Assembly: GCA_024280855.1 (NCBI GenBank)
Contig: JAJRPG010000060.1
Coordinates: forward strand, 1 to 64,000
Direction: 5' to 3'
DNA: 64,000 nt
Source of the DNA: Planctomycetota bacterium
Lineage (GTDB): Bacteria; Planctomycetota; Phycisphaerae; UBA1845
Shown here one piece after another: positions 32,922-56,222 of the stretch. The position numbers and the translations under genes are program-made. Within the stretch, counting starts at the first letter, position 1. Every line of letters begins with the position of its first letter. The notes under the pieces are model-generated. The model searched no databases, was not told the origin of the DNA, and saw only the letters and a list, made by a program, of their open reading frames with translations.

Positions 32922-33048
32922 GGCGATAGTCATTGACGATCAGGCGATCCACGGCACCCGAATGGTACAAGTGGGCTGCTCTGTTTCCAGCCTGACCCGT
33001 TGCCCGCAACACCCGCTGCATGGGACCTGAACGTCAATGAATACCGCC
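32922..33048 (-). ncRNA. ffs: Signal recognition particle RNA (4.5S-type, small SRP RNA)
   Basis: Read on the minus strand, the ends pair over about 23 bases: ggcggtattcattgacgttc then agg at 33048-33026, against cctgatcgtcaatgactatc then gcc at 32944-32922, with four mismatched positions. In the middle is the diagnostic Ffh-binding hairpin gggtcaggctggaaacagag followed by cagccc: the ggtcagg and agcagcc symmetric-loop strands and a GNRA-type tetraloop closed by ctg/cag. The size is about 127 bases, slightly above the 114 of E. coli 4.5S RNA. It lies directly upstream of dnaX on the same strand, a common bacterial placement. The exact ends are set from pairing and may differ by several bases. 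Confidence 0.92.
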
Positions 33049-42594: not shown

Positions 42595-43071
42595 CGCATG
42601 TCGCAAACAACCACATAATTCGACTATCCAAAGGTAGATAGAGTAACAGATGTTGGGGGCATGAGTGAAAAATGGCTAGCTTAACAATATTTGGCTCATG
42701 CCAGAGATAACACATAATGTATTCTCAGCAGGTCGCTGACTCGCCTACTGACTCAAAGTTAATCTACACCCTAATGTTGATATTCGGATTCTATCCATAC
42801 TTTAACAGCTTCCCTGATAGGAGATTATTGCCGCTTCGTCCTAGTTGCATCGTTACGATTGGCGCGTACTATCTCCCATATCCGATGTCTATGAGGGACA
42901 ATCGGTACAAGTGTAGGCCGGAATTTTTGTGATGTTTGACGTCGCGGTCAGGCTCACGAAGTAAAATAAGAACCTGGAATATTGGTTCTAACAACAACGG
43001 CTGGTAACAGCCCAGGACTTAATGGCAGCAGGTCAGGCCATAGCCCGATCCACAATCGAAGGAGATTTGCG
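42595..43071. other. Intergenic region before the TSP3 protein
   Basis: No gene is supported; a 71-codon frame at 42717-42932 lacks a ribosome site and protein-like composition. The region must hold the promoter of the following gene. A ttgata (42777-42782) is a possible -35 without a good -10. The ribosome site aaggagat (43061-43068 region) precedes ATG 43072. Confidence 0.45.
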
Positions 43072-44550
43072 ATGAAGCGACGGATTGCGACGATTAGTTC
43101 TATGTGGTTAGTCTTGATAACTCTTACCATGCTCAATATGGGTGGTACTTGCCCGGGCGTAGACCCCATCTTTCGTGGCGGTGGAAATACTGGCGGCGGG
43201 AACTCTGGCGGCGGGAACTCTGGGTCAGGCATGCCTTCGGACGATTTTTGGACCACACCAGAAGGTAGCACAACCGACTACTCATTTGCAAACACACCAA
43301 TACCGGCGGGTTTCTTTGGTACAGGCTCAGATGCTTTTGCTGGAACTGTAAATCTCATGGGTTCAGCTCTTGACTCGGATAATCTGGGGCCTGCGGATAC
43401 GATCATTCGCCGGTTAGAGGATAAATGCCCGACCGATGTTGGCGATTCCGTCACAGTCGATGTCGAGATCGTAGCACTCTCACTTGTGAGCGTGGAACCG
43501 ATCACAGTCACCTTCGATGATGGCCAAACCCTGGAGTTTGATGTTCAGGTATGCCTGTCGAATCTTCCTCAGCAAACGGGAACCATGACCATCACGCTCG
43601 ACGAAGCAGATTGCGGCACCTTCGACACAATGATCTCTGTCACACCTAAGTTCACTTTTATTAATAGCCTCACTCGTGCCGGCCAATTCGTCGACTGCGG
43701 CGAAGCTGATCAATTCTGCGACCCTCTCGAACTAACTGGCACTGACAACGGTTGGGCACTTATTGATGGGCCTGGTGGTTACAAATCCAGCGACAATGGT
43801 ATCGTTAGTATCCCTGCTGGCATGTCATTCGACAGTAACTGCGATGGACAAATGGACGGCATGACCATGGCTCAGTCTACATGCTTCCAACCTGGCGTAG
43901 CCTGTAAAAATGGCGGGTTTGAATGCACCTTTAACGATGAGGCGGAAGGACGTCTTGACGGTGACGGCGGAGGTCAACATCAATCGTTCCTTAACTCCGA
44001 CGAAGACCGAGACAGTGACGGCTGGCCTAATGATTGCGACAATTGCCCGGACATGGCTAGTCCTGACCAAACGGATTCGGATGAAGATGGCCTGGGGGAT
44101 ATTTGCGACAATTGCGTTGACGATGAAAATGCCGATCAGGCAGATGCGGATGGCGATGAAGTTGGAGATGTTTGCGACAACTGCCCCGATGACGCCAACG
44201 CCGACCAGGCTGACGCAGATGGCAATGGCGTCGGCGATGTATGCGAAGGGACAGTTGACCCTTGGGTGGCGGCGTTAGGCACTTACTCGCTCGAAGGAAC
44301 CTGCACAGAGAGCGCGGTGATGGTAACACTAGCGATGGTCAACGACTCGCTCGTGCTGCAAGGATTCCCTGAAAACGAAGACATTAGCTTGGACTGCAAT
44401 GACGCAATCGCTACTGGTAGCAACGTCACCGCGTTCGGTAATATTGGACACGATGTAACCATTACCATCCAAAGCGATGGAACGTCTACATTTGATCTAT
44501 TGCAACCGGATACGCAAGGCTCTTGCAGTTCAACCTTGATTAAGCAATAG
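43072..44550 (+). CDS. Secreted calcium-binding protein with thrombospondin type 3 repeats
   Basis: A 492-residue exported protein. It begins with a signal peptide MKRRIATISSMWLVLITLTM and a GGTC that could serve as a lipobox Cys, then a Gly/Asn-rich linker with GGGNSGGGNSG repeats, and a globular part. At about residues 312-392 are thrombospondin type 3 repeats (DSDGWPNDCDNCPD, QTDSDEDGLGDICDNC, QADADGDEVGDVCDNC), each binding Ca via DxDxDG loops with paired cysteines. A small C-terminal beta domain follows. The start is ATG 43072 with aaggagat upstream; a frame from 42982 is rejected because it has no ribosome site and would bury the signal. A surface or matrix role is likely. It is followed by a strong hairpin. 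Confidence 0.85.
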   Translation: MKRRIATISSMWLVLITLTMLNMGGTCPGVDPIFRGGGNTGGGNSGGGNSGSGMPSDDFWTTPEGSTTDYSFANTPIPAGFFGTGSDAFAGTVNLMGSALDSDNLGPADTIIRRLEDKCPTDVGDSVTVDVEIVALSLVSVEPITVTFDDGQTLEFDVQVCLSNLPQQTGTMTITLDEADCGTFDTMISVTPKFTFINSLTRAGQFVDCGEADQFCDPLELTGTDNGWALIDGPGGYKSSDNGIVSIPAGMSFDSNCDGQMDGMTMAQSTCFQPGVACKNGGFECTFNDEAEGRLDGDGGGQHQSFLNSDEDRDSDGWPNDCDNCPDMASPDQTDSDEDGLGDICDNCVDDENADQADADGDEVGDVCDNCPDDANADQADADGNGVGDVCEGTVDPWVAALGTYSLEGTCTESAVMVTLAMVNDSLVLQGFPENEDISLDCNDAIATGSNVTAFGNIGHDVTITIQSDGTSTFDLLQPDTQGSCSSTLIKQ

Positions 44551-44993: not shown

Positions 44994-46721
44994 ATGAATG
45001 GTGCGCGCAGGCTCTGGTCAGATACAATTTCGCGCACATGGCGAAAAGCTGTATCAGGTGTTTGCAAGCTGTCATTAATTGGCACACTGGTCTTGAGTTG
45101 TGTGGCGATACCCGTACCTCAAACCATCGCCGCGATAGACCGCATTACTGGCGTATATGACAACACCTCAATTGTATTCACGGTGTTCCTAACCGAGCCA
45201 AGTTTCGCAGCTGACGGCTGGAATATCCAGCTCTTCATAAATGCCGACAATGTGGCTACCACGGGATATGGTGATGGTATCGAATTCGTAGCTTCGACGA
45301 ATGATTTTATAGATGCTGATTTCATTCACGTTCGTGGCACAGCGACAAGTGATGGTCCGGGAGGCTGGGGACAATCCCTGGGGATGGCGCTAGTAACCTT
45401 GCCCGATGACATGACCGTCGTAATGGAGATTCCGTTATCGCCAAATGTATTACCATCTGGCTTCGTGCGATATGGGTTTGAAGTATATCTCAACGGTCGT
45501 ATTGTCGATGCTGTAAGCAGCAAACAATCAATCATGGCTAAGGGCAGCGTCGGGTGTACGATTGATAATCAATGCAAGGATGACTTTTTTTGCTCTGGCG
45601 TGGAAACCTGCGTCAACGGTTTTTGCCAAACAACTGGCGACCCGTGTCCTGGACAAAGTTGCGACAATTCGCTCCAGCAATGTTTTGGATGTTTATCAGA
45701 TGAAGATTGCGACGATGGACTTTTTTGCAATGGACTCGAAACATGCGATGCGAACTTTAGCTGCCAGTTAGGTACACCGCCAAACTGCAACAGCGATGGC
45801 ATAGCATGTACGACCAATGATTTTTGCGACGAGGCGCAAGATTCTTGCAACGGTACACCCGACGATACATTATGTGCCAGCATGTTTGCTTGTGTCCCTT
45901 TCGAAGGATGTTCACCGATTGATAGTGAAGTGCCGATGCTAACTTCATCTGGCGCGCGATTTATTAGTGTTGACCCGCAGCCGCGTAGCTCGATTATTCC
46001 CGTGGCTATTTTTGTAACATCCCCTACCTGGCCTTGCTTGGGAAAATATGTCGGAACGCCCATAACCGTAGACTTTGACAATAACCATACACTAGATGGC
46101 ACGGTTGCGGCCTTGGTAGACGACCCGCGGGATGCGGCCCGACTCGCACCTAACGACTGGACCGGGAAAGCATGTAATAATGACGGACCTTCTTGCCTTG
46201 TAGACTCCGATTGCGCCCAGGGGGAAACATGTCGCCCCATTAGAAGATGCGACCAATCTCTACTTGCATGTGATGCGTCCGCTGATTGTCCTATTGGCGA
46301 AAGCTGCGTAAGCGCCCGTCTTCATATTACGGGATATAACATCATTCCTAGTTCGATTAACTTTATAACTAAAGAAATAATACCCGTCTCGTATTCTTTC
46401 GTAATTGAAAGTGCAGACTTTATCTCTGGCGCGAATTCAGTTGAGATGCAGATATTCGGCGATGTTGATATGAATTCTGTTGTGAACGTGGCAGACGTGG
46501 GCCTGGTCGTTAGTGCGTTCCAGGGAACATTTCATCTGCCTAACGGAGATGCCATAAACTCCATACTGCCGGCCATCGACCAGGCTGGCTCGTCCATTTG
46601 TTCAACTTCACTACCAGCCATCATAACAGCCAACGACATTTTAATGACCATCAAGTCTTTTCAACTGTTCTCGTTTGCTGACCTGTCAGAAATATCCGGG
46701 TGTCCGTTGCCGTGCCCGTAA
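44994..46721 (+). CDS. Secreted Cys-rich protein with dockerin-like C-terminus
   Basis: Exported protein of 575 residues from ATG 44994. A signal peptide (hydrophobic core LSLIGTLVLSCVA, cleavage near TIAA/ID) is followed by a beta-sandwich-like domain (NIQLFINADNVATTGYGDG), Cys-rich repeats with the pattern DDFFCSGVETCVNGFC and DDGLFCNGLETCD, and a module that begins GARFISVDPQPRSSIIP and includes LVDDPRDAARLAP. The C-terminus has two EF-hand-like halves: GDVDMNSVVNVADVGLVVSAFQG and TANDILMTIKSFQ. The last two parts recur in the 1137-residue protein at 47827-51240. A longer frame begins at ATG 44823, but its 57 extra residues precede the signal peptide; neither has a strong ribosome site. 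Function: surface attachment or display is inferred. Confidence 0.8.
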   Translation: MNGARRLWSDTISRTWRKAVSGVCKLSLIGTLVLSCVAIPVPQTIAAIDRITGVYDNTSIVFTVFLTEPSFAADGWNIQLFINADNVATTGYGDGIEFVASTNDFIDADFIHVRGTATSDGPGGWGQSLGMALVTLPDDMTVVMEIPLSPNVLPSGFVRYGFEVYLNGRIVDAVSSKQSIMAKGSVGCTIDNQCKDDFFCSGVETCVNGFCQTTGDPCPGQSCDNSLQQCFGCLSDEDCDDGLFCNGLETCDANFSCQLGTPPNCNSDGIACTTNDFCDEAQDSCNGTPDDTLCASMFACVPFEGCSPIDSEVPMLTSSGARFISVDPQPRSSIIPVAIFVTSPTWPCLGKYVGTPITVDFDNNHTLDGTVAALVDDPRDAARLAPNDWTGKACNNDGPSCLVDSDCAQGETCRPIRRCDQSLLACDASADCPIGESCVSARLHITGYNIIPSSINFITKEIIPVSYSFVIESADFISGANSVEMQIFGDVDMNSVVNVADVGLVVSAFQGTFHLPNGDAINSILPAIDQAGSSICSTSLPAIITANDILMTIKSFQLFSFADLSEISGCPLPCP

Positions 46722-47826: not shown

Positions 47827-50800
47827 ATGTCGCACCTACACAAGGCAATAATGATAACAACAGTTTTTATTGCTATATCATCACAATCTCGCGCCCAGGA
47901 AATCGCCTTCGTGCCAATCGGTGCTGACGGTGCGCACACGATTGCGGGTGATGAAATCATTTTGCAAGGCGGCGGGCAACTCGTCGAGTTAGCGATCATG
48001 ATTTCGGGGTGGGATCCGAATTTAGATGGTGCGCCATTGCTGGGTACTTACCAGGCGGCCTTTGACTCATCATCATTCAGTAGCGGTACAGGCGATCCAC
48101 TAACTGCTTTTGCCACCCCGGATGCCACGGCTGGCGCGTATGTTATCCTCAAGCGTTGCACCGTTGGTCAGTTGGTCGACCCTAACGGCCCGCGTTGCGA
48201 TATCGTTTCTTGTCCTGCTGGTGAGTTTTGCGTAGATAATTCCGGGCTGGTGGTCGCGGGCTTTGATCCTCTGTGTGGTGTTGCGACGATCCTGCCTGAT
48301 TACGAATATTTTTGCACGACTGGACCTGGCGCAATAACGGGAGTGCCGGATGATGGCACGGCTCGCTATGGCGGCACCTTGCTTATCGAAGTTCCAGCTA
48401 CCGCGGCCGGGACTTATACGATTGCGTTCAAAAATAATCCGCAGATTAGCTTCATGCTGGATTTTGATGGCAATCAGATCAATCCTGTCGCGTTAACAGC
48501 AGCGAGGATTTCAATCGCCTGCCAAAACAATGCCGACTGCGATGATGGTAACGCCTGTACAAATGATGTATGCAATGGGTCTAATCGTTGCGACAATACG
48601 CCAAACTTCAATAGCATCACAGACTGCTGTAATCCCACGTCGGGGCAGCTGACGCCACTAGATGACGGAAATGATTGTACAAGCGGTACATGCGATGTGC
48701 AGACGGGCATAGTAGCGCAACAGCCGCTTCCCAATGGCACCATGTGCGGGAACCCTTCAGCAGGCCAATGTGATCTACAGGATACATGCGATGCGAACGG
48801 AACCTGTATTGACCGAATAGCGGTTGCTGGCACGGCATGTGGCAGCTCCGGTACTACCGCATGTAGCAATCCCGACTCTTGTGATGCTTTTGGTTCTTGC
48901 TCATCTAATGATCTGCCCTTCGGCGCAATGTGTGGCGATCCTACTAATGACCAATGCACTTCCGCAGACAGTTGCAATGGCGCGGGGACATGCAGCCCGA
49001 ACCATACAGCCAATGGTACTACATGTGATGACACATTATTTTGCACAGTCAACGAATCATGCAATCAGGGCACATGCGGTAATGGCTCACCTACTTGCAA
49101 TGATAACATTGCCTGCACCGACGATTCCTGCAATGAAGCAGCTAGCTCTTGCACTAACGCATTAAACGATAACCTCTGCGACAATCTACAATTTTGTGAT
49201 GGCGCAGAAGTATGCGATGGTATATTAGGTTGTATCGTTAGCGCGGGCTCGGTTCCAGATTGCAATGACTCTGTAAATTGCACCATTGATACCTGTGACG
49301 AGACTAACGATCAATGCGTCAACACCCAGGATGATTCGCTATGTAACAATAACCAGTTTTGCGATGGTGTAGAAATATGCGACGCCAATCTCGATTGCAT
49401 CGTGCAAGCCGGTACCGTGCCCAATTGCGATGACGGCGTACCTTGTACCATCGATCAATGCAACGAAGCCAATGACGCGTGCGACAACATTCCTGATGAC
49501 TCTGTTTGCGTAGATGACGGCCTATTTTGTACGGGCTTGGAAGTTTGTGATCCTCTACTAGGCTGTGGCAGTGCGGGTTGCCCTTGCGGCGAGCCATGTA
49601 CGATCACCTGCGACGAAACGACTGACTCCTGTCAATGCGAAGCGCCTATCGTGGTAGAAACTACATCACGGTTCATGCTGCTCACATTACAGCCGCCAGA
49701 CTCGCAGGTTCCCCAAGCCATAGCCATTCGTGCCAAGTGTAACGTGGGAGTCATGCGATATGCAGGGCCACCTTCACCGTTTGATATAAATAGAGATGGC
49801 ATACCCGATGGCGTATTATCGTTTCTTGTAGACGATGTTGCGGATGCAGCTTTCTTAACGCCTCCCCAATGGGGCAGCGCGGTTTACATCACTGGCGCCG
49901 GCATCGCCCCGGGCACGTTTTACGACGTAGCAGTGGATTGTGGCACGGTGGCTTCTCCGGCATTGTCAACATTTAACGTCGCGCTCACAAAAATATGGGG
50001 AGACGCGAGTGGAAACGACATAAACAGCGCTGAAGATATCCTTCAAACCGTCAAATTTTTCCAGGGCGATAATTCGCTCTCCAACCTAACTCAAGTTGAT
50101 AGTGACGGCTGCACTCCCAACCTGTTGGTAAATGCCTCAGACATCCTTCATACTGTCCTTGGCTTTATGCGACTCCCATATGACGAAGCAACGCCTTGCA
50201 CGACAGACTGTCCACTGTGCCACCCAGCCCAATGCGATGATAAGAACGCTTGCACTGATGATTCGTGCGACATCAATACTGGTGATTGTATAAACACCAT
50301 TAATTTCGACGACACTATGTTCTGCTGTAACCCTACAGACAGGACGCTCACAGCCATTGACGATGGTAATCTCTGCACGACAGATTCCTGCAACTCACTG
50401 TCTGGTCAGGTCTTACATTCGCTCATTGACTGCGAAGATAACAATGACTGCACCGTCGATAGTTGCGTTGCGGGTATCTGCGTAAACACTGATTTCACTG
50501 ACATAGCGTGCGCAGACAACACCAACTGTCCGGCTACATCCGCTGGATGCGATTTCGTTACCACTGGTCGATGTACATGTCCTGGCGCACCGGCTGCGTT
50601 GATAGAGTGGCAACCGGTCAGTTCTACCGGGCCATTTACCATCATAGGAAATGAAATAATCATACCAAGTGGCGGTGTCGAAGTTACCATTGATGCCTTC
50701 GTGTCTAATTGGGCGTCAGAAGAACTCCGGGGCCTCCAATTTATGATCCTGGCTAACGAAAGCTACTCGAGCGGACAAACTGGTATTCTTAGCCCGGTGA

Positions 50801-51240
50801 CTATTCCTGATAACGACGCGGGCGCATTCATCGTGACGCATCGATGCACCGTCAACAACTTAATAGATGCGAATGGCCAAGTGTGCGGTATTAACGGCTC
50901 GCCGACTAGCTGCATAGGCGAATTTTGTGTTGCTGATCCAGCATACATTTTCGCAGATGAAATAAACAACACCATTAACCTCACAGGGACGAATACTGAA
51001 GATTACCTGTGGGCGATGATAATAGAAACTAATATACCACCTGCCGTTGATCCTGGACTGCGCAAATATGTGGGTACGCTCGTCTTAAATGTACCTCCTA
51101 ATGCTGCCGGAACATTTACATTGCAATTTAATCAAAGTGCAGACATAACATTTCTATTATCTGATGGTAATTCGCCCGGCCTATTTTCCAGTATTTCGCC
51201 GCTCACCTTGAGGCCCGGCATGATTACAATTGGAAATTAA
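47827..51240 (+). CDS. Large secreted Cys-rich repeat protein with duplicated globular domain
   Basis: A 1137-residue exported protein from ATG 47827 (aaagga six bases upstream; the signal peptide ends SRAQ). In order: domain A, about residues 20-225 (from IAFVPIGADG to MLDFDGNQINP); Cys-rich repeats to about 610, such as DCDDGNACTNDVCNGSNRC and DNLQFCDGAEVCDGILGC; a module starting TTSRFMLLTLQPPDSQVPQ; two EF-hand-like halves (WGDASGNDINSAEDILQTVKFFQG and VNASDILHTVLGF); more Cys repeats; and domain B, about residues 920-1130, a second copy of domain A. A and B share DAGAFIVTHRCTV/TAGAYVILKRCTV, VDPNGPRCD/IDANGQVCG, GEFCV, and AAGTYTIAFK/AAGTFTLQFN. It is probably a structural surface or matrix protein. 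Confidence 0.85.
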   Translation: MSHLHKAIMITTVFIAISSQSRAQEIAFVPIGADGAHTIAGDEIILQGGGQLVELAIMISGWDPNLDGAPLLGTYQAAFDSSSFSSGTGDPLTAFATPDATAGAYVILKRCTVGQLVDPNGPRCDIVSCPAGEFCVDNSGLVVAGFDPLCGVATILPDYEYFCTTGPGAITGVPDDGTARYGGTLLIEVPATAAGTYTIAFKNNPQISFMLDFDGNQINPVALTAARISIACQNNADCDDGNACTNDVCNGSNRCDNTPNFNSITDCCNPTSGQLTPLDDGNDCTSGTCDVQTGIVAQQPLPNGTMCGNPSAGQCDLQDTCDANGTCIDRIAVAGTACGSSGTTACSNPDSCDAFGSCSSNDLPFGAMCGDPTNDQCTSADSCNGAGTCSPNHTANGTTCDDTLFCTVNESCNQGTCGNGSPTCNDNIACTDDSCNEAASSCTNALNDNLCDNLQFCDGAEVCDGILGCIVSAGSVPDCNDSVNCTIDTCDETNDQCVNTQDDSLCNNNQFCDGVEICDANLDCIVQAGTVPNCDDGVPCTIDQCNEANDACDNIPDDSVCVDDGLFCTGLEVCDPLLGCGSAGCPCGEPCTITCDETTDSCQCEAPIVVETTSRFMLLTLQPPDSQVPQAIAIRAKCNVGVMRYAGPPSPFDINRDGIPDGVLSFLVDDVADAAFLTPPQWGSAVYITGAGIAPGTFYDVAVDCGTVASPALSTFNVALTKIWGDASGNDINSAEDILQTVKFFQGDNSLSNLTQVDSDGCTPNLLVNASDILHTVLGFMRLPYDEATPCTTDCPLCHPAQCDDKNACTDDSCDINTGDCINTINFDDTMFCCNPTDRTLTAIDDGNLCTTDSCNSLSGQVLHSLIDCEDNNDCTVDSCVAGICVNTDFTDIACADNTNCPATSAGCDFVTTGRCTCPGAPAALIEWQPVSSTGPFTIIGNEIIIPSGGVEVTIDAFVSNWASEELRGLQFMILANESYSSGQTGILSPVTIPDNDAGAFIVTHRCTVNNLIDANGQVCGINGSPTSCIGEFCVADPAYIFADEINNTINLTGTNTEDYLWAMIIETNIPPAVDPGLRKYVGTLVLNVPPNAAGTFTLQFNQSADITFLLSDGNSPGLFSSISPLTLRPGMITIGN

Positions 51241-51347: not shown

Positions 51348-51573
51348 GAGTAGTCGGTCGGCGTCAGTTGACCGACAAAACCTATGTGTCGTTCCTGATT
51401 TCCGGTAACACAGCGCATCGGCTTTCCACCGCTACCTAGTTTGCCTAACTCACACCTGTAGCGCATATTTTGCCGCTTCAATATCCGCAATACATACTGC
51501 AGAACGACTACAATTGCTGCGTGGTCTTTATCTGACGGATGAGATTCCGCCAAAGACCTACGAACGAAGCAAT

Positions 51574-52431
51574 ATGATAGATCGCCCCATCAAAAAAAGC
51601 GTAGCGTCACAAGACGTTCGGTCGCCACAGATGGACCACGCCATGCGCCGTGCGGTGGATCAACTTCACGAAATCGCTCAGGCCTCTGCGTCTCAAAAAG
51701 AGAGTGATGCTAAGATATTGGCAGCGGCTTTGTCTTCAGCGCATACCCTTCGAGATGTCTGGCAACAAAAAGCGGTCAGATGGCGGCGGACAGTTTGGCT
51801 TTGTGCGGGTTGCGGCATCATCGCTTCGCTGACGATTGGGTTATTCTCCTGGCAAAATCTGCGGCAGGCAGACCTGCATCAAGTTCGCCTTCGCCGTGAA
51901 ATCGTTCAGCGGGACGATCAAATATCCAACCTCCGCTCACAGGCAAGCGCACAAGCGGAGGAATCTTCCCAGCTCGCAAAAAATACGGCAGCCTCAAATC
52001 GTATGGAAACCATTATCTCAAGCTACGCTGAAAACACCAACATTCGCTTCGAATCTTTGGCCCTGAATTCTGAAAACCTCGTGCAAAAAATGTCTGACAT
52101 AGCCCGTCAGCAAAATGGATTGCTATCATCGATTACACAAACACTGCAAAGCATAGCTAGCCATCGGGCTTCCCCAACAACTCAATCTGCGACATTGCCT
52201 GTAATCCAAAATCCCAAAGCAGTCGTAGCCAATGCAACAGTGGCTATCACCACGCCTAGCCAGAACTCAAAAGCAGCCCCCTCGCAGGTGCGGCTACTCC
52301 GTTCCAGACCGATTGACAGCGACGAGCTAACAGTTTCTACACGCAAAACCCCGCAACAAACATGGGCGTTATCCGAAGGCTTTCTAAACCCCTCGGGCAA
52401 CTGTATTCCCAGAAAGGCCTCTACCCGGTAG
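51574..52431 (+). CDS. Single-pass membrane protein with coiled coil
   Basis: A 285-residue protein (from ATG 51574; a TTG at 51514 gives 20 more residues). A cytoplasmic-looking N-terminal helical segment is followed by one transmembrane helix (TVWLCAGCGIIASLTIGLF, about residues 70-90), then a long heptad-like region with many charged and Q residues (RLRREIVQRDDQISNLRSQA), and a disordered Ser/Thr/Pro-rich C-terminus. No family was recognised. The arrangement is that of a membrane-anchored trimer or dimer stalk or a scaffold. It lies behind the Cys-rich gene cluster and ahead of the tricorn gene on the same strand, but with gaps of over 300 bases on each side. Confidence 0.6.
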   Translation: MIDRPIKKSVASQDVRSPQMDHAMRRAVDQLHEIAQASASQKESDAKILAAALSSAHTLRDVWQQKAVRWRRTVWLCAGCGIIASLTIGLFSWQNLRQADLHQVRLRREIVQRDDQISNLRSQASAQAEESSQLAKNTAASNRMETIISSYAENTNIRFESLALNSENLVQKMSDIARQQNGLLSSITQTLQSIASHRASPTTQSATLPVIQNPKAVVANATVAITTPSQNSKAAPSQVRLLRSRPIDSDELTVSTRKTPQQTWALSEGFLNPSGNCIPRKASTR

Positions 52432-52802
52432 GGCTAGAGACTTCTTTTACAAAGCAAGCTATTCCGAATACCAACATTTTTTTGTGACTACGAATAGTTA
52501 TGTACACAAAAAAACACAAATCCATGCGTTTTTGTAGTCTATTTGCCATTGGCCAGCTATTGCTCCCCTAAACCGCTACAGCTATCTTTAATTTATGAGC
52601 AACGGCTGTCTTTCTAAGGCAAGATGCTGACAGGCACGAGAACTTTATAACGTCTGGTTAAATACCAGCCATGGCGCTGCTGATTAGAGAAATGATCGTC
52701 GCGGAGTAATTGAAATTCAATAATTAATCTCGGTTATCGCTTAACGCAAGCATTTGAATGTAACTTGTGGAGATAGCCTACACGTCCGTAAGGAGACTGG
52801 GT
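52432..52802. other. 371-bp gap before the tricorn gene
   Basis: No gene. AT-rich throughout. Apart from a strong ribosome site aaggaga (52790-52796) for the tricorn gene, nothing specific was recognised; the promoter could not be placed. Confidence 0.45.
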
Positions 52803-55800
52803 TTGCGTACTAAAATAATAAAATGTATCTGTGTATCCTTGGCTGTAATGTGTGCGTGTTCCGTTGAATCCGGGACGCACATGGTTATCGCCTCTCCGCC
52901 GACCGCGTTAGGCGATAACCATCAGCCTCACGCTGGCATGTTGCGGTATCCCGACGTTAGCGCAACGCACATCGTGTTTGTCTACGCCAACAACCTTTGG
53001 GTAGTACCGCGAGCCGGTGGCGTCGCCAGCCCGCTTGCCAGTCCTCCAGGTAGCGAATCTTTACCGAGATTTAGCGCAGATGGTAATACGATAGCTTACG
53101 TCGGAAATTACGAAGGCAACCGGGATTTATACACGGTCAGAATGTCCGGGGGCGTCAGCATGCGCGTCACCCATCACGGAGCCGGTGAAGCGATGTGCGA
53201 TTGGACGCCAGATGGCCAATTGCTCTATTACTCGAATGCGTTATCAGGGCTACGCAGGCAGACTCAAATTTTCACGGTAAGCCCAACAGGGGGAATGCCC
53301 ACAAAACTCCCCGTTCCTTACGGTGCAAATGGTGCGATTAGTCCGGATGGGAAATGGCTGGCATACACACCTCATACGCGGGACACGAGAACATGGAAGC
53401 GCTACCGAGGGGGCATGGCTACAGACATTTGGTTGTTGAATCTCGAAACGCATGAATCCAGACAGATTACCGATTGGGAAGGAACCGACTCTCTGCCCAT
53501 GTGGCTGGGCAACACTGTCTATCATCTTTCTGACCAGGGCAAAAACGCGCGTCTTAATATCTGGGCGTATGACGTAGCTAGCGGCAAGCGAAACCAAGTT
53601 ACCCATATGGATAAGTACGACGTGAAGTGGCCTGCGATGGGGCCCGGGGAAAATGGCAACGGCGAAATCGTGTATCAACGCGGGCCGGATATGGTGCTGC
53701 TTGACCTCGGCACGGGCAAGCAGCGCACCGTCAATGTCACCATTCCAGGAGATCGTCCTACCATCAGATCACGCCAAGTTGACTATGATGATTTCATCAC
53801 CAGCGGCGACATCTCTCCCACCGGCAAACGTGCTGTCTTCAATGCACGCGGCGACATATGGACTGTACCCGCGAAACATGGCACGCCGCGCCACTTGACC
53901 AGAACGGACAACGCCGCGGAACGCGATGCGGCCTGGAGTCCGGATGGTCAGTGGATAGCGTATTTTAGCGATAAAACGGGCGAGTATGAATTGTACATCA
54001 TACAATCAGATGGCCAGGGTGAAACGCGCAAGCTAACGTCAAACGCCAGCACATTTCGCTTTGCGCCGACATGGTCCCCGGACTCGAATCTAATCGCATT
54101 TTCCGACAAAACGGGTGATAAGTTCGTCCACAATATCGAAAACTCTGAGACGAAAAATTTTGATACCGATCAATGGGCAGGGCGAACGCAGTTCAGTTGG
54201 TCCCACGACAGCCAATGGATTACCTACGCTAAAGGCAGCGACAATCCACAGGGTGCGATTTGGCTTTATCACATCGAAGATGATAAACTTCATCAAGTAA
54301 CCAGCGGCATGTTCAACGACACTTGGCCAACATTCGATCGTAAAGGCGACTATCTGTTTTTTGCCAGCAACCGCCACATCAGTTCACCCATCTATGAAGA
54401 CCTTGGGCATTCGTTTGCTTATTCAAATACTGACATGCTCTTCGTCGTTCCACTACGAGACGAAGTCGGTTCACCGTGGGCACCCAAAAGCGACGACGAA
54501 ACCTGGGGAGATGACAAAGATGCAGATGGCGACGACGGTGACAAGGACGCCAAGAAAGACAAAGACACCGACGAAAAAAAGATATCTGATAAGGATGAAG
54601 ATAAAGACGACGATGAAAAAGATGATGACAAAGAAGATATAGAACCAATCATCATCGAATTGGAAAACTTTGAACGCCGGGCTATACCTCTTCCAGTCGA
54701 TCATGGCTCGTTTTCTAATCTTGCCGTCAACAATAAAGGACAATTGCTTTATGTCCGAGGCGCTCGCGCGGGCAGTGGTGGCAAGCCGTCTATCAAGCTG
54801 TTTGATCTGAGCGATGATAATGAAAAGAAAGAGGAAAAAACAGTTGTTAAGGGTTCGAGAAGTTTCGCCATGTCAGACAACGGCAAGAAACTGCTCGTTC
54901 GCAAAAAGAATAAATATGCCATCGTAGACGCCAAGCCCGACCAGAAGCTCGACAAGCCATTGTCTCTTAGCGGTATGAAAGCACACGTCCTACCCAGAGA
55001 CGAATGGCAACAAATGTTTCTGGACGCCTGGCGAATCGAAAGGGATTTCTTTTATGATCCCAACATGCACGGTGTAGACTGGAAAGCCATACGCGATCAA
55101 TACCTACTTATGATAAAAGATTGCGTCTCGCGTGAGGATGTCACCTTTGTCATCGGAGAAATGATCTCTGAAATCAATGTCGGGCATGCCTACGTTCGCG
55201 GTGGACCTGACCTTGAGAAGCAACCGAGAGTTTCAGTCGGCTATCTCGGCGTTGACTATACACTTGAAAATGGCGCGTATCGTATCGGCAAAATCTTCGA
55301 AGGTGCATCTTGGGATACCGACGCTCGCGGTCCATTGAGTCAGCCAGGCGTAGACGTCAAAACCGGAGACTATTTATTAGCTATCAACGGTGTGGCGTTG
55401 GATACGTCTAAAGACCCATGGGCATCATTCCAGGGATTAGCTAAGAAAACCGTAACCATCACGGTCAGCGATAAACCTACGAAAGATGATGACGCACGCG
55501 AAGTCGTCGTAGAGTTGCTAGCCAGTGAATCTACACTGCGGTACCGAAGTTGGATTGAGCATAACCGGGCATACGTCGAGGAAAAAACTGGCGGGCGCGT
55601 AGGATACATTTACGTCCCGGACACAGGCATCAACGGACAAAACAATTTGTTCAGACAGTTCTTTGGCCAGATTCATAAAGACGCCATCATCATAGATGAA
55701 CGCTGGAATGGAGGCGGCCAAATCCCTACGAGATTTATCGAACTTCTAAATCGACCTGTCACCAATTACTGGGCACGCCGCAATGGCACAGACTGGACCT

Positions 55801-56222
55801 GGCCACCAGATGCGCATCATGGGCCGAAGTGTATGCTCATCAACGGCCTTGCCGGGTCAGGCGGTGACGCATTCCCATTTTACTTCCGCCAGGCAAACCT
55901 GGGGAAATTGATCGGCATGCGTACATGGGGCGGACTTGTCGGCATGTCAGGAAACCCCGGACTGCTCGACGGAGGCTCTGTTACTGCGCCGTCATTCTCT
56001 TTTTATGAAACAGATGGAACCTGGGGAATCGAAGGTCATGGCGTCGACCCGGACATCAAAGTCATCGACGATCCAGCGCTAATGGTAAACGGCGGAGACC
56101 CCCAACTGGACGCCGCGATTGATCTCATGATAAATGAGATAAAGCGAAACCCTTACGTCAAACCGAATCGACCTGCGTACCCCAATCGTAGTGGCATGGG
56201 TGTCACGATTGAGGATAGATAA
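52803..56222 (+). CDS. Tricorn-type protease homologue with signal peptide
   Basis: Self-compartmentalising peptidase of 1139 residues. An N-terminal signal peptide is followed by two WD-like beta-propellers, then a C1 domain, a PDZ domain (about 820-920, GYLGVDY..GVDVKTGDYLLAINGV) and an S41-type catalytic domain with Ser in GSGGDAF near residue 1018 and a late Glu in GIEGHGVDPD. The C1 histidine is seen in INVGHAYVRGG, where the Ser before His of archaeal tricorn is Gly. Between the propellers is a highly acidic, Lys/Asp-rich stretch (about 564-620) that is unusual. The start was put at TTG 52803, with aaggaga seven bases upstream; GTG 52767 is in frame but weaker. Export implies a periplasmic or cell-surface peptidase. 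Confidence 0.92.
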   Translation: MRTKIIKCICVSLAVMCACSVESGTHMVIASPPTALGDNHQPHAGMLRYPDVSATHIVFVYANNLWVVPRAGGVASPLASPPGSESLPRFSADGNTIAYVGNYEGNRDLYTVRMSGGVSMRVTHHGAGEAMCDWTPDGQLLYYSNALSGLRRQTQIFTVSPTGGMPTKLPVPYGANGAISPDGKWLAYTPHTRDTRTWKRYRGGMATDIWLLNLETHESRQITDWEGTDSLPMWLGNTVYHLSDQGKNARLNIWAYDVASGKRNQVTHMDKYDVKWPAMGPGENGNGEIVYQRGPDMVLLDLGTGKQRTVNVTIPGDRPTIRSRQVDYDDFITSGDISPTGKRAVFNARGDIWTVPAKHGTPRHLTRTDNAAERDAAWSPDGQWIAYFSDKTGEYELYIIQSDGQGETRKLTSNASTFRFAPTWSPDSNLIAFSDKTGDKFVHNIENSETKNFDTDQWAGRTQFSWSHDSQWITYAKGSDNPQGAIWLYHIEDDKLHQVTSGMFNDTWPTFDRKGDYLFFASNRHISSPIYEDLGHSFAYSNTDMLFVVPLRDEVGSPWAPKSDDETWGDDKDADGDDGDKDAKKDKDTDEKKISDKDEDKDDDEKDDDKEDIEPIIIELENFERRAIPLPVDHGSFSNLAVNNKGQLLYVRGARAGSGGKPSIKLFDLSDDNEKKEEKTVVKGSRSFAMSDNGKKLLVRKKNKYAIVDAKPDQKLDKPLSLSGMKAHVLPRDEWQQMFLDAWRIERDFFYDPNMHGVDWKAIRDQYLLMIKDCVSREDVTFVIGEMISEINVGHAYVRGGPDLEKQPRVSVGYLGVDYTLENGAYRIGKIFEGASWDTDARGPLSQPGVDVKTGDYLLAINGVALDTSKDPWASFQGLAKKTVTITVSDKPTKDDDAREVVVELLASESTLRYRSWIEHNRAYVEEKTGGRVGYIYVPDTGINGQNNLFRQFFGQIHKDAIIIDERWNGGGQIPTRFIELLNRPVTNYWARRNGTDWTWPPDAHHGPKCMLINGLAGSGGDAFPFYFRQANLGKLIGMRTWGGLVGMSGNPGLLDGGSVTAPSFSFYETDGTWGIEGHGVDPDIKVIDDPALMVNGGDPQLDAAIDLMINEIKRNPYVKPNRPAYPNRSGMGVTIEDR

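What the first reader, a model, noticed from the sequence alone, without database searches (positions are those of the whole stretch)
47827..51240. Large secreted protein with a globular domain duplicated around a Cys-rich and dockerin-like core
The first ~200 residues and the last ~210 residues share the same series of motifs (TAGAYVILKRCTV/DAGAFIVTHRCTV, VDPNGPRC/IDANGQVC, GEFCV, AAGTYTIAFK/AAGTFTLQFN). Between them lie Cys-rich repeats and two EF-hand-like halves. The middle module is also in the 575-residue protein at 44994-46721. The protein therefore looks like a symmetric bivalent building block.
Basis: partly seen in the sequence, partly recalled or inferred. Interest (0 to 1): 0.7.

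Follow-up and report, generated by a model that had tools for sequence, protein, structure and literature searches.

The report
Scaffold protein with two hidden cohesins
A large secreted planctomycete protein carries at each end a domain that standard databases miss but that is predicted to fold like a cohesin, the socket of bacterial enzyme-docking systems, with a docking plug in its middle, so it is probably a branching scaffold for an extracellular, largely protein-digesting complex.

Summary
ORF 47827-51240 (1137 aa) has two homologous ~210-aa ends (blastp E 4e-27; Smith-Waterman 261 against 35±6 for shuffles). Between them lie Cys-rich repeats, a ~120-aa module and a dockerin-like pair of EF-hand halves. 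The AlphaFold2 model of the N-end (core pLDDT 80-93) matches cohesins in all 50 entries listed by VIA (best Z 12.9, 2.6 Å over 135 residues). The C-end gives Z 9.3, ranks 1-45 cohesins. Pfam Cohesin does not detect the module and profile-profile similarity is marginal. The architecture is cohesin–Cys–X–dockerin–Cys–cohesin, with both halves conserved in congeneric genomes. The module occurs 2-28 times per genome in 21 of 36 family genomes and in none of 293 others of the phylum. Its numbers follow an X–dockerin pair (rho 0.91), although phylogeny leaves two or three independent contrasts. X–dockerins end secreted M12B, M6, M10, M28 and S8 peptidases, as in the proposed 'planctosome' (PMC6461901). 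Probably a branching adaptor scaffoldin; binding is not shown. 'Symmetric duplication' is only partly right: the C-end is an old separate lineage.

The parts
47827..51240 (+). whole gene: 1137-aa secreted protein, cohesin-like / Cys-rich / X-like / dockerin-like / Cys-rich / cohesin-like
   Evidence: ORF; both halves conserved in congeneric genomes, although the relatives' contigs break inside the Cys repeats; dN/dS well below 1, dS near saturation
47827..47895 (+). probable signal peptide (aa 1-23)
   Evidence: read from the sequence (hydrophobic stretch, ...SRAQ); no predictor was run
47896..48522 (+). N-terminal cohesin-fold module (aa 24-232)
   Evidence: AF2 model, core pLDDT 80-93; Foldseek and VIA top rows all cohesins
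48118..48267 (+). Cys-containing insert inside the N module (aa 98-147), low confidence in the model
   Evidence: pLDDT below 50; Cys pattern conserved in the alignment
48523..49641 (+). Cys-rich repeat region (aa 233-605)
   Evidence: Pfam Dicty_CTDC repeats; DNA repeats
49642..50001 (+). 'mid' / X-like module directly before the dockerin (aa 606-725)
   Evidence: profile collects 72 matches in paralogs and relatives, almost always just before a dockerin
50002..50211 (+). dockerin-like module, two EF-hand halves, internal (aa 726-795)
   Evidence: profile from paralogs; loop 1 canonical, loop 2 with a 3-residue insertion (read from the sequence); class-1 X-Doc
50212..50580 (+). second Cys-rich linker (aa 796-918)
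   Evidence: sequence; in G001 the N-half contig ends at its start and the C-half contig begins within it; G002 contig L174 holds most of it
50581..51237 (+). C-terminal cohesin-fold module (aa 919-1137)
   Evidence: homology to the N module; Foldseek probability 1.00 to cohesins; VIA Z 9.3, first non-cohesin 6.6; own clade
44994..46721 (+). neighbouring 575-aa secreted protein with the same X-dockerin pair at its C-terminus
   Evidence: syntenic in L052 / L120

Best explanation
The protein is an adaptor scaffoldin of a cellulosome-like extracellular system in a family of Phycisphaerae. Its two ends are divergent cohesins that sequence libraries do not recognise. Its centre is an X-module-dockerin pair. 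After secretion the central dockerin would plug into a cohesin of another protein, and each cohesin end would hold a dockerin-bearing protein (peptidases, beta-propeller proteins, a cytochrome), with the Cys-rich arms acting as disulfide-braced spacers. One unit would thus join three partners, and similar proteins with one to three cohesins plus a terminal dockerin would extend the network. Shown: the homology of the two ends, the module order, the repertoire of X-dockerin proteins, purifying selection. Supported by prediction: the cohesin fold. Inferred: cohesin-dockerin binding, its calcium dependence, partner choice, and the digestive role.
For: Fold: all 50 VIA rows are cohesins (Z 8.8-12.9; best 2.6 A over 135 residues), as are Foldseek ranks 1-30. 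The C-end gives Z 9.3 against 6.6 for the first non-cohesin. Architecture: of 62 ORFs with the module, 34 also carry a detected X-dockerin, nearly always at the C-terminus; some have two or three cohesin modules followed by X-dockerin, like scaffoldins, and one paralog joins this module with a Pfam Cohesin and a Pfam dockerin. Cargo: X-dockerins end M12B (two), M6, M10, M28 (two) and S8 peptidases and a cytochrome c. Numbers: module count against X-dockerin count, Spearman 0.91 in 36 family genomes, but -0.34 against general PF00404 dockerins. The two halves are conserved across the genus with dN 0.10-0.21 and dS 1.1-3.7.
Against: No binding evidence of any kind. PF00963 does not match, and hhalign against local Pfam-type cohesins gives only 4% probability, although its score (22.7) exceeds the controls (6.9-15.7). 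The counting evidence reduces to two or three independent changes on an rpoB tree and reaches no significance; the X-dockerin profile was built from module-bearing genomes, and some of those proteins carry both modules. Genomes G015 and G028 have 14 and 19 X-dockerins without the module. The second calcium loop has an insertion. The middle region of the second model was not predicted with confidence.
Confidence: 0.6

Rival explanations
1. Cohesin fold without docking: the modules are adhesion or matrix-building beta-sandwiches (homotypic contacts, polymer or glycan binding), and the protein is part of a disulfide-rich surface coat.
For: The fold alone shows no function; sequence similarity to binding cohesins is marginal; the module carries a Cys-containing insert; a cohesin fold has been assigned to a family of neural adhesion molecules (TMEM132, PMC6030884, title and abstract); the protein is very Cys-rich.
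Against: Frequent fusion to, and matching numbers with, X-dockerins; tandem cohesins ahead of a dockerin in relatives.
Confidence: 0.22
2. The X-dockerin unit is mainly a C-terminal sorting or anchoring signal, and the ends are the passenger of an exported protein.
For: X-dockerin lies at the extreme C-terminus of nearly all of the proteins and ends in a conserved ..C..PCP or CLTGTCVPSCP tail; all 60 genomes searched have PF00404 dockerins but only 31 have a PF00963 cohesin, so many dockerins lack a known partner.
Against: In this protein and in L032, L118, L119 and L133 a copy of the unit is internal, which a strictly terminal signal would not allow; the signal idea does not explain the cohesin-fold modules.
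Confidence: 0.12
3. Assembly artefact: two genes joined by a misassembly within the Cys repeats.
For: In the congeneric genomes contigs break inside the repeats of this gene.
Against: In G001 the N-half reading frame stays open past the dockerin to the contig end, and another contig carries the orthologous C-half followed by the same downstream genes; G002 holds the orthologous C-half with the same downstream genes.
Confidence: 0.03

Closest known systems
'Planctosome' of freshwater Phycisphaerae (Nemodlikiaceae), PMC6461901
   Same: Cohesin and dockerin proteins of Phycisphaerae with dockerin-bearing peptidases (M12B Reprolysin_4-like); an adaptor holding both a dockerin and a cohesin; proposed for polypeptide degradation; hypothetical there too.
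   Different: Here the cohesins belong to a family that Pfam does not see, carry a Cys-containing insert, and are numerous (20 matches in the own genome); the adaptor has two cohesins around an X-dockerin; Cys-rich spacers stand where that adaptor has a HYR domain. The lamin-tail/P-domain anchor of that model was not looked for.
Clostridial cellulosome scaffoldins and adaptor scaffoldins with X-dockerin (type II)
   Same: Cohesin fold; cohesins plus an X-dockerin-like pair on one non-catalytic chain; two dockerin classes recall type I / type II specificity.
   Different: No carbohydrate-binding module or glycoside hydrolase detected in this protein or in the X-dockerin proteins scanned; the dockerin is internal; the second calcium loop is longer. 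That the 'mid' module is an X module is analogy only.
Cloacimonadota (Ca. Stygibacter) cellulosome-like complex, PMC8542988
   Same: Dockerin-bearing peptidases (S8, C25) and a cohesin scaffold outside the cellulolytic Firmicutes.
   Different: One very long scaffold with CBMs and recognisable cohesins; other phylum.

Membership tests
Cohesin | nine-stranded beta-sandwich of cohesin topology | tested here: met
   predicted fold only: N-end VIA Z 12.9, C-end Z 9.3, all best rows cohesins
Cohesin | recognisable cohesin sequence profile (PF00963) | tested here: not met
   no PF00963 match up to E 10 in 10 members; hhalign 4%; hence not filed as a PF00963 member
Cohesin | binds a dockerin | not testable with these tools
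   needs ITC/pull-down or a complex structure; only co-occurrence was seen
Dockerin type I | two EF-hand-like loop-helix repeats | tested here: met
   loop 1 aa 726-737 canonical, loop 2 aa 758-772 with a 3-residue insertion; profile links it to PF00404-positive paralogs
Dockerin type I | PF00404 score over cut-off | tested here: not met
   none for this protein up to E 1; relatives pass
Dockerin type I | calcium-dependent folding and binding | not testable with these tools
   needs biophysics
Scaffoldin | non-catalytic chain with more than one cohesin | tested here: met
   two cohesin-fold modules (predicted); no catalytic Pfam domain
Cellulosome scaffoldin | carbohydrate-binding module, cellulolytic cargo | tested here: not met
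   none in this protein; peptidases and no glycoside hydrolase among 20 X-dockerin proteins
Planctosome | dockerin-bearing secreted peptidases | tested here: met
   M12B, M6, M10, M28, S8 with terminal X-dockerin
Planctosome | anchor protein with lamin-tail and P domains | not tested
   not searched for

The most novel reading that the evidence does not exclude
A previously unrecognised, Cys-armoured cohesin family, together with a co-expanded X-dockerin family of two classes, builds a branching disulfide-braced extracellular protease network in one lineage of Phycisphaerae; it supplies unrecognised partners for at least part of the many planctomycete dockerins that lack a known cohesin.
Probability: 0.4. 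Interest if true: 0.7.

Novelty: new variant of a known kind. Interest (0 to 1): 0.55.

Why it matters
Planctomycete genomes hold dozens of dockerins: all 60 genomes searched have PF00404 hits, but 29 have no Pfam cohesin. What these dockerins bind is open. A cohesin family hidden from sequence libraries would give a testable partner for one expanded X-dockerin set. It would also extend cellulosome logic from polysaccharides to proteins and offer new orthogonal cohesin-dockerin pairs.

Tried and rejected
Pfam and NCBIfam on the protein and its neighbours gave only Dicty_CTDC and TSP_3-type repeats. Profile search of the PDB by sequence gave nothing of note. An alignment that mixed X-dockerins with C-end homologues put them in the wrong place and was replaced; the resulting model is poor outside the C module (mean pLDDT 44), so no fold is claimed for the X-like module or the dockerin. 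Sequence-level proof of cohesin homology by hhalign was not convincing. The first rpoB tree very probably contained four wrong-frame ORFs (very long branches) and was rebuilt. The strong count correlation is not claimed as proof, because the module-bearing genomes mostly form one clade. A recent intragenic duplication as the source of the C-end was rejected. A misassembly was considered and is unlikely.

Full report
OBSERVATION. The reading frame 47827-51240 encodes 1137 residues. Residues 24-232 and 919-1137 align over 220 columns at 34% identity (blastp E 4e-27); the Smith-Waterman score is 261, where 1000 shuffles gave 35.3±5.8 and at most 63. Between the ends lie Cys-rich repeats (six stretches matching Pfam Dicty_CTDC), a module of about 120 residues and two EF-hand-like halves. 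The module and the dockerin-like part recur in the neighbouring 575-residue protein.

WHAT THE ENDS ARE. In the stretches fetched from the own genome an iterated profile finds 13 copies of the end module; the whole-genome search gives 20 matches (split copies can count twice). An AlphaFold2 model made from 11 copies has a well predicted sandwich (blocks of ten residues mostly at 80-93) around a poorly predicted insert of 50 residues that holds part of the conserved cysteines. Foldseek ranks 1-30 are all cohesins (best E 2.9e-5, probability 1.00), and all 50 VIA rows are cohesins, Z 8.8-12.9, best 2.6 Å over 135 residues. The C-end, modelled within a longer and mostly poor model, also gives cohesins (Foldseek probability 1.00; VIA Z 9.3, first non-cohesin Z 6.6 at rank 46). 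Sequence libraries miss it: no PF00963 match up to E 10 in ten members and no PDB sequence match of note. A profile comparison with some 20 Pfam-type cohesins of related genomes scores 22.7 (4% probability), above reversed, shuffled and unrelated controls (6.9-15.7), with the aligned part in register at the C-terminal strands, but this is not proof. I therefore call it a cohesin-fold module and do not file it under PF00963.

THE CENTRE. Residues 726-737 form a canonical 12-residue dockerin calcium loop; the second loop (758-772) has three extra residues. The same extension, often D-x-x-x-C-x-P-N-G, is seen in many relatives. The preceding module stands directly before the dockerin in nearly every relative, like the X module of X-dockerin pairs (analogy, from general knowledge). 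A tree of 30 X-dockerins of the genome splits into two classes (100/98): one of 22 that includes the peptidases except a subtilase-plus-beta-helix protein, and one of 8 that includes this protein, its two N-end paralogs, the 575-residue neighbour and a cytochrome c.

ARCHITECTURE AND RELATIVES. Of 62 ORFs with the end module in the fetched stretches (many cut at contig or fetch ends), 34 carry an X-dockerin detected by my profile, as a rule at the very C-terminus; G002 and G033 have proteins with two and three cohesin modules before the X-dockerin; G001, G002 and G017 have proteins with X-dockerin, cohesin, X-dockerin in that order. The order cohesin-X-dockerin-cohesin of the present protein was seen in none of the other fetched proteins apart from its split orthologues. 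dN is 0.10-0.12 for the N-half and 0.21 for the C-end, with dS 1.1-3.7, near or at saturation. In a tree of 64 modules the C-ends of the three genomes form a clade of their own (100/100), apart from the N-ends, so this is not a recent duplication within the gene.

DISTRIBUTION. The module was found in 21 of 36 genomes of the family including the own one (2-28 matches), in none of 24 genomes of other families of the order, and in none of 293 other genomes sampled over the phylum. General dockerins (PF00404) are in all 60 genomes, Pfam cohesins in 31. The module's count follows that of the X-dockerin pair (Spearman 0.91 over 36 genomes, 0.90 with one genome per genus) and not that of PF00404 dockerins (-0.34). 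On an rpoB tree, however, most module-bearing genomes form one clade; only two or three independent contrasts exist, all in the expected direction or neutral, which cannot reach significance.

CARGO. Among 20 proteins of this genome that end in or contain an X-dockerin and lack the end module, Pfam finds peptidases M12B (two), M6, M10, M28 (two) and S8, FG-GAP and SBBP propellers, PKD, cytochrome c, and several without any domain; no glycoside hydrolase. Two of the three confident Reprolysin_4 proteins of the genome and two of its eight M28 matches carry the X-dockerin.

MECHANISM. Best reading: an adaptor scaffoldin. The central dockerin docks to a cohesin on another chain, each end binds a dockerin-bearing protein, and Cys-rich arms space the modules. 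Steps shown: homology, module order, cargo repertoire, conservation. Step predicted: fold. Steps inferred: binding, calcium, specificity, assembly, proteolysis of particulate protein. Confidence 0.6. Rivals: a cohesin fold used for adhesion or coat formation (0.22), and X-dockerin as a C-terminal sorting signal (0.12), which the internal position here argues against.

KNOWN RELATIVES. The nearest published idea is the 'planctosome', a hypothetical cohesin-dockerin complex for polypeptide degradation in freshwater Phycisphaerae, with Reprolysin_4-like and M14 peptidases and an adaptor holding dockerin and cohesin (PMC6461901). A peptidase-bearing cellulosome-like complex was also proposed in Cloacimonadota (PMC8542988). 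A survey of cellulosome bacteria names one member of the Planctomycetes group whose largest scaffoldin has two cohesins (PMC11557425). What is new here is a cohesin-fold family missed by Pfam, with a Cys-containing insert, its multiplicity, the X-dockerin pairing, and a two-cohesin adaptor with an internal dockerin. Verdict: new variant of a known kind, interest 0.55.

Noticed in passing
window 47896-48522; L009:6769-7407 (-); L010:9137-9775 (-): The N-end module is 90% identical to those of two paralogs in the same genome but about 80% to its syntenic orthologue in G001; G002 also has a near-identical pair. This suggests gene conversion or recent exchange that keeps N-end cohesins alike.
   Followed up: partly
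60 genomes of the order: All carry PF00404 dockerins (2-88 matches), yet 29 have no PF00963 cohesin at E 0.001: many orphan dockerins.
   Followed up: partly
L009:7679-11713 (-); L053:1140-5258 (+): A protein of about 1350-1370 aa with cytochrome c domains (Pfam, L009) and a terminal X-dockerin lies directly beside an N-end cohesin paralog in G000 and G001.
   Followed up: partly
L032:2818-5592 (+); L117:970-2142 (+): Dockerin followed by another beta-rich, cohesin-looking domain and a Cys-rich tail, again an internal dockerin; the domain was not folded.
   Followed up: no
window 52767-56222 (+) and 51514-52431 (+): Tricorn-type protease (PD40 propeller, Tricorn_C1, PDZ, S41) and a 305-aa protein stay downstream of the gene in all three congeneric genomes.
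   Followed up: partly
window 42982-44550 (+): TSP type 3 repeat protein with a lipoprotein-like start, syntenic in L052; weak NCBIfam similarity to MtsC and Omp28-related proteins.
   Followed up: no
L033:4955-9724 (+): Subtilase plus right-handed beta-helix with a partial match to the cohesin-fold profile and a terminal X-dockerin: possibly an enzyme with a built-in cohesin.
   Followed up: no
window 32935-33032 (-): Bacterial small SRP RNA (Rfam RF00169).
   Followed up: no
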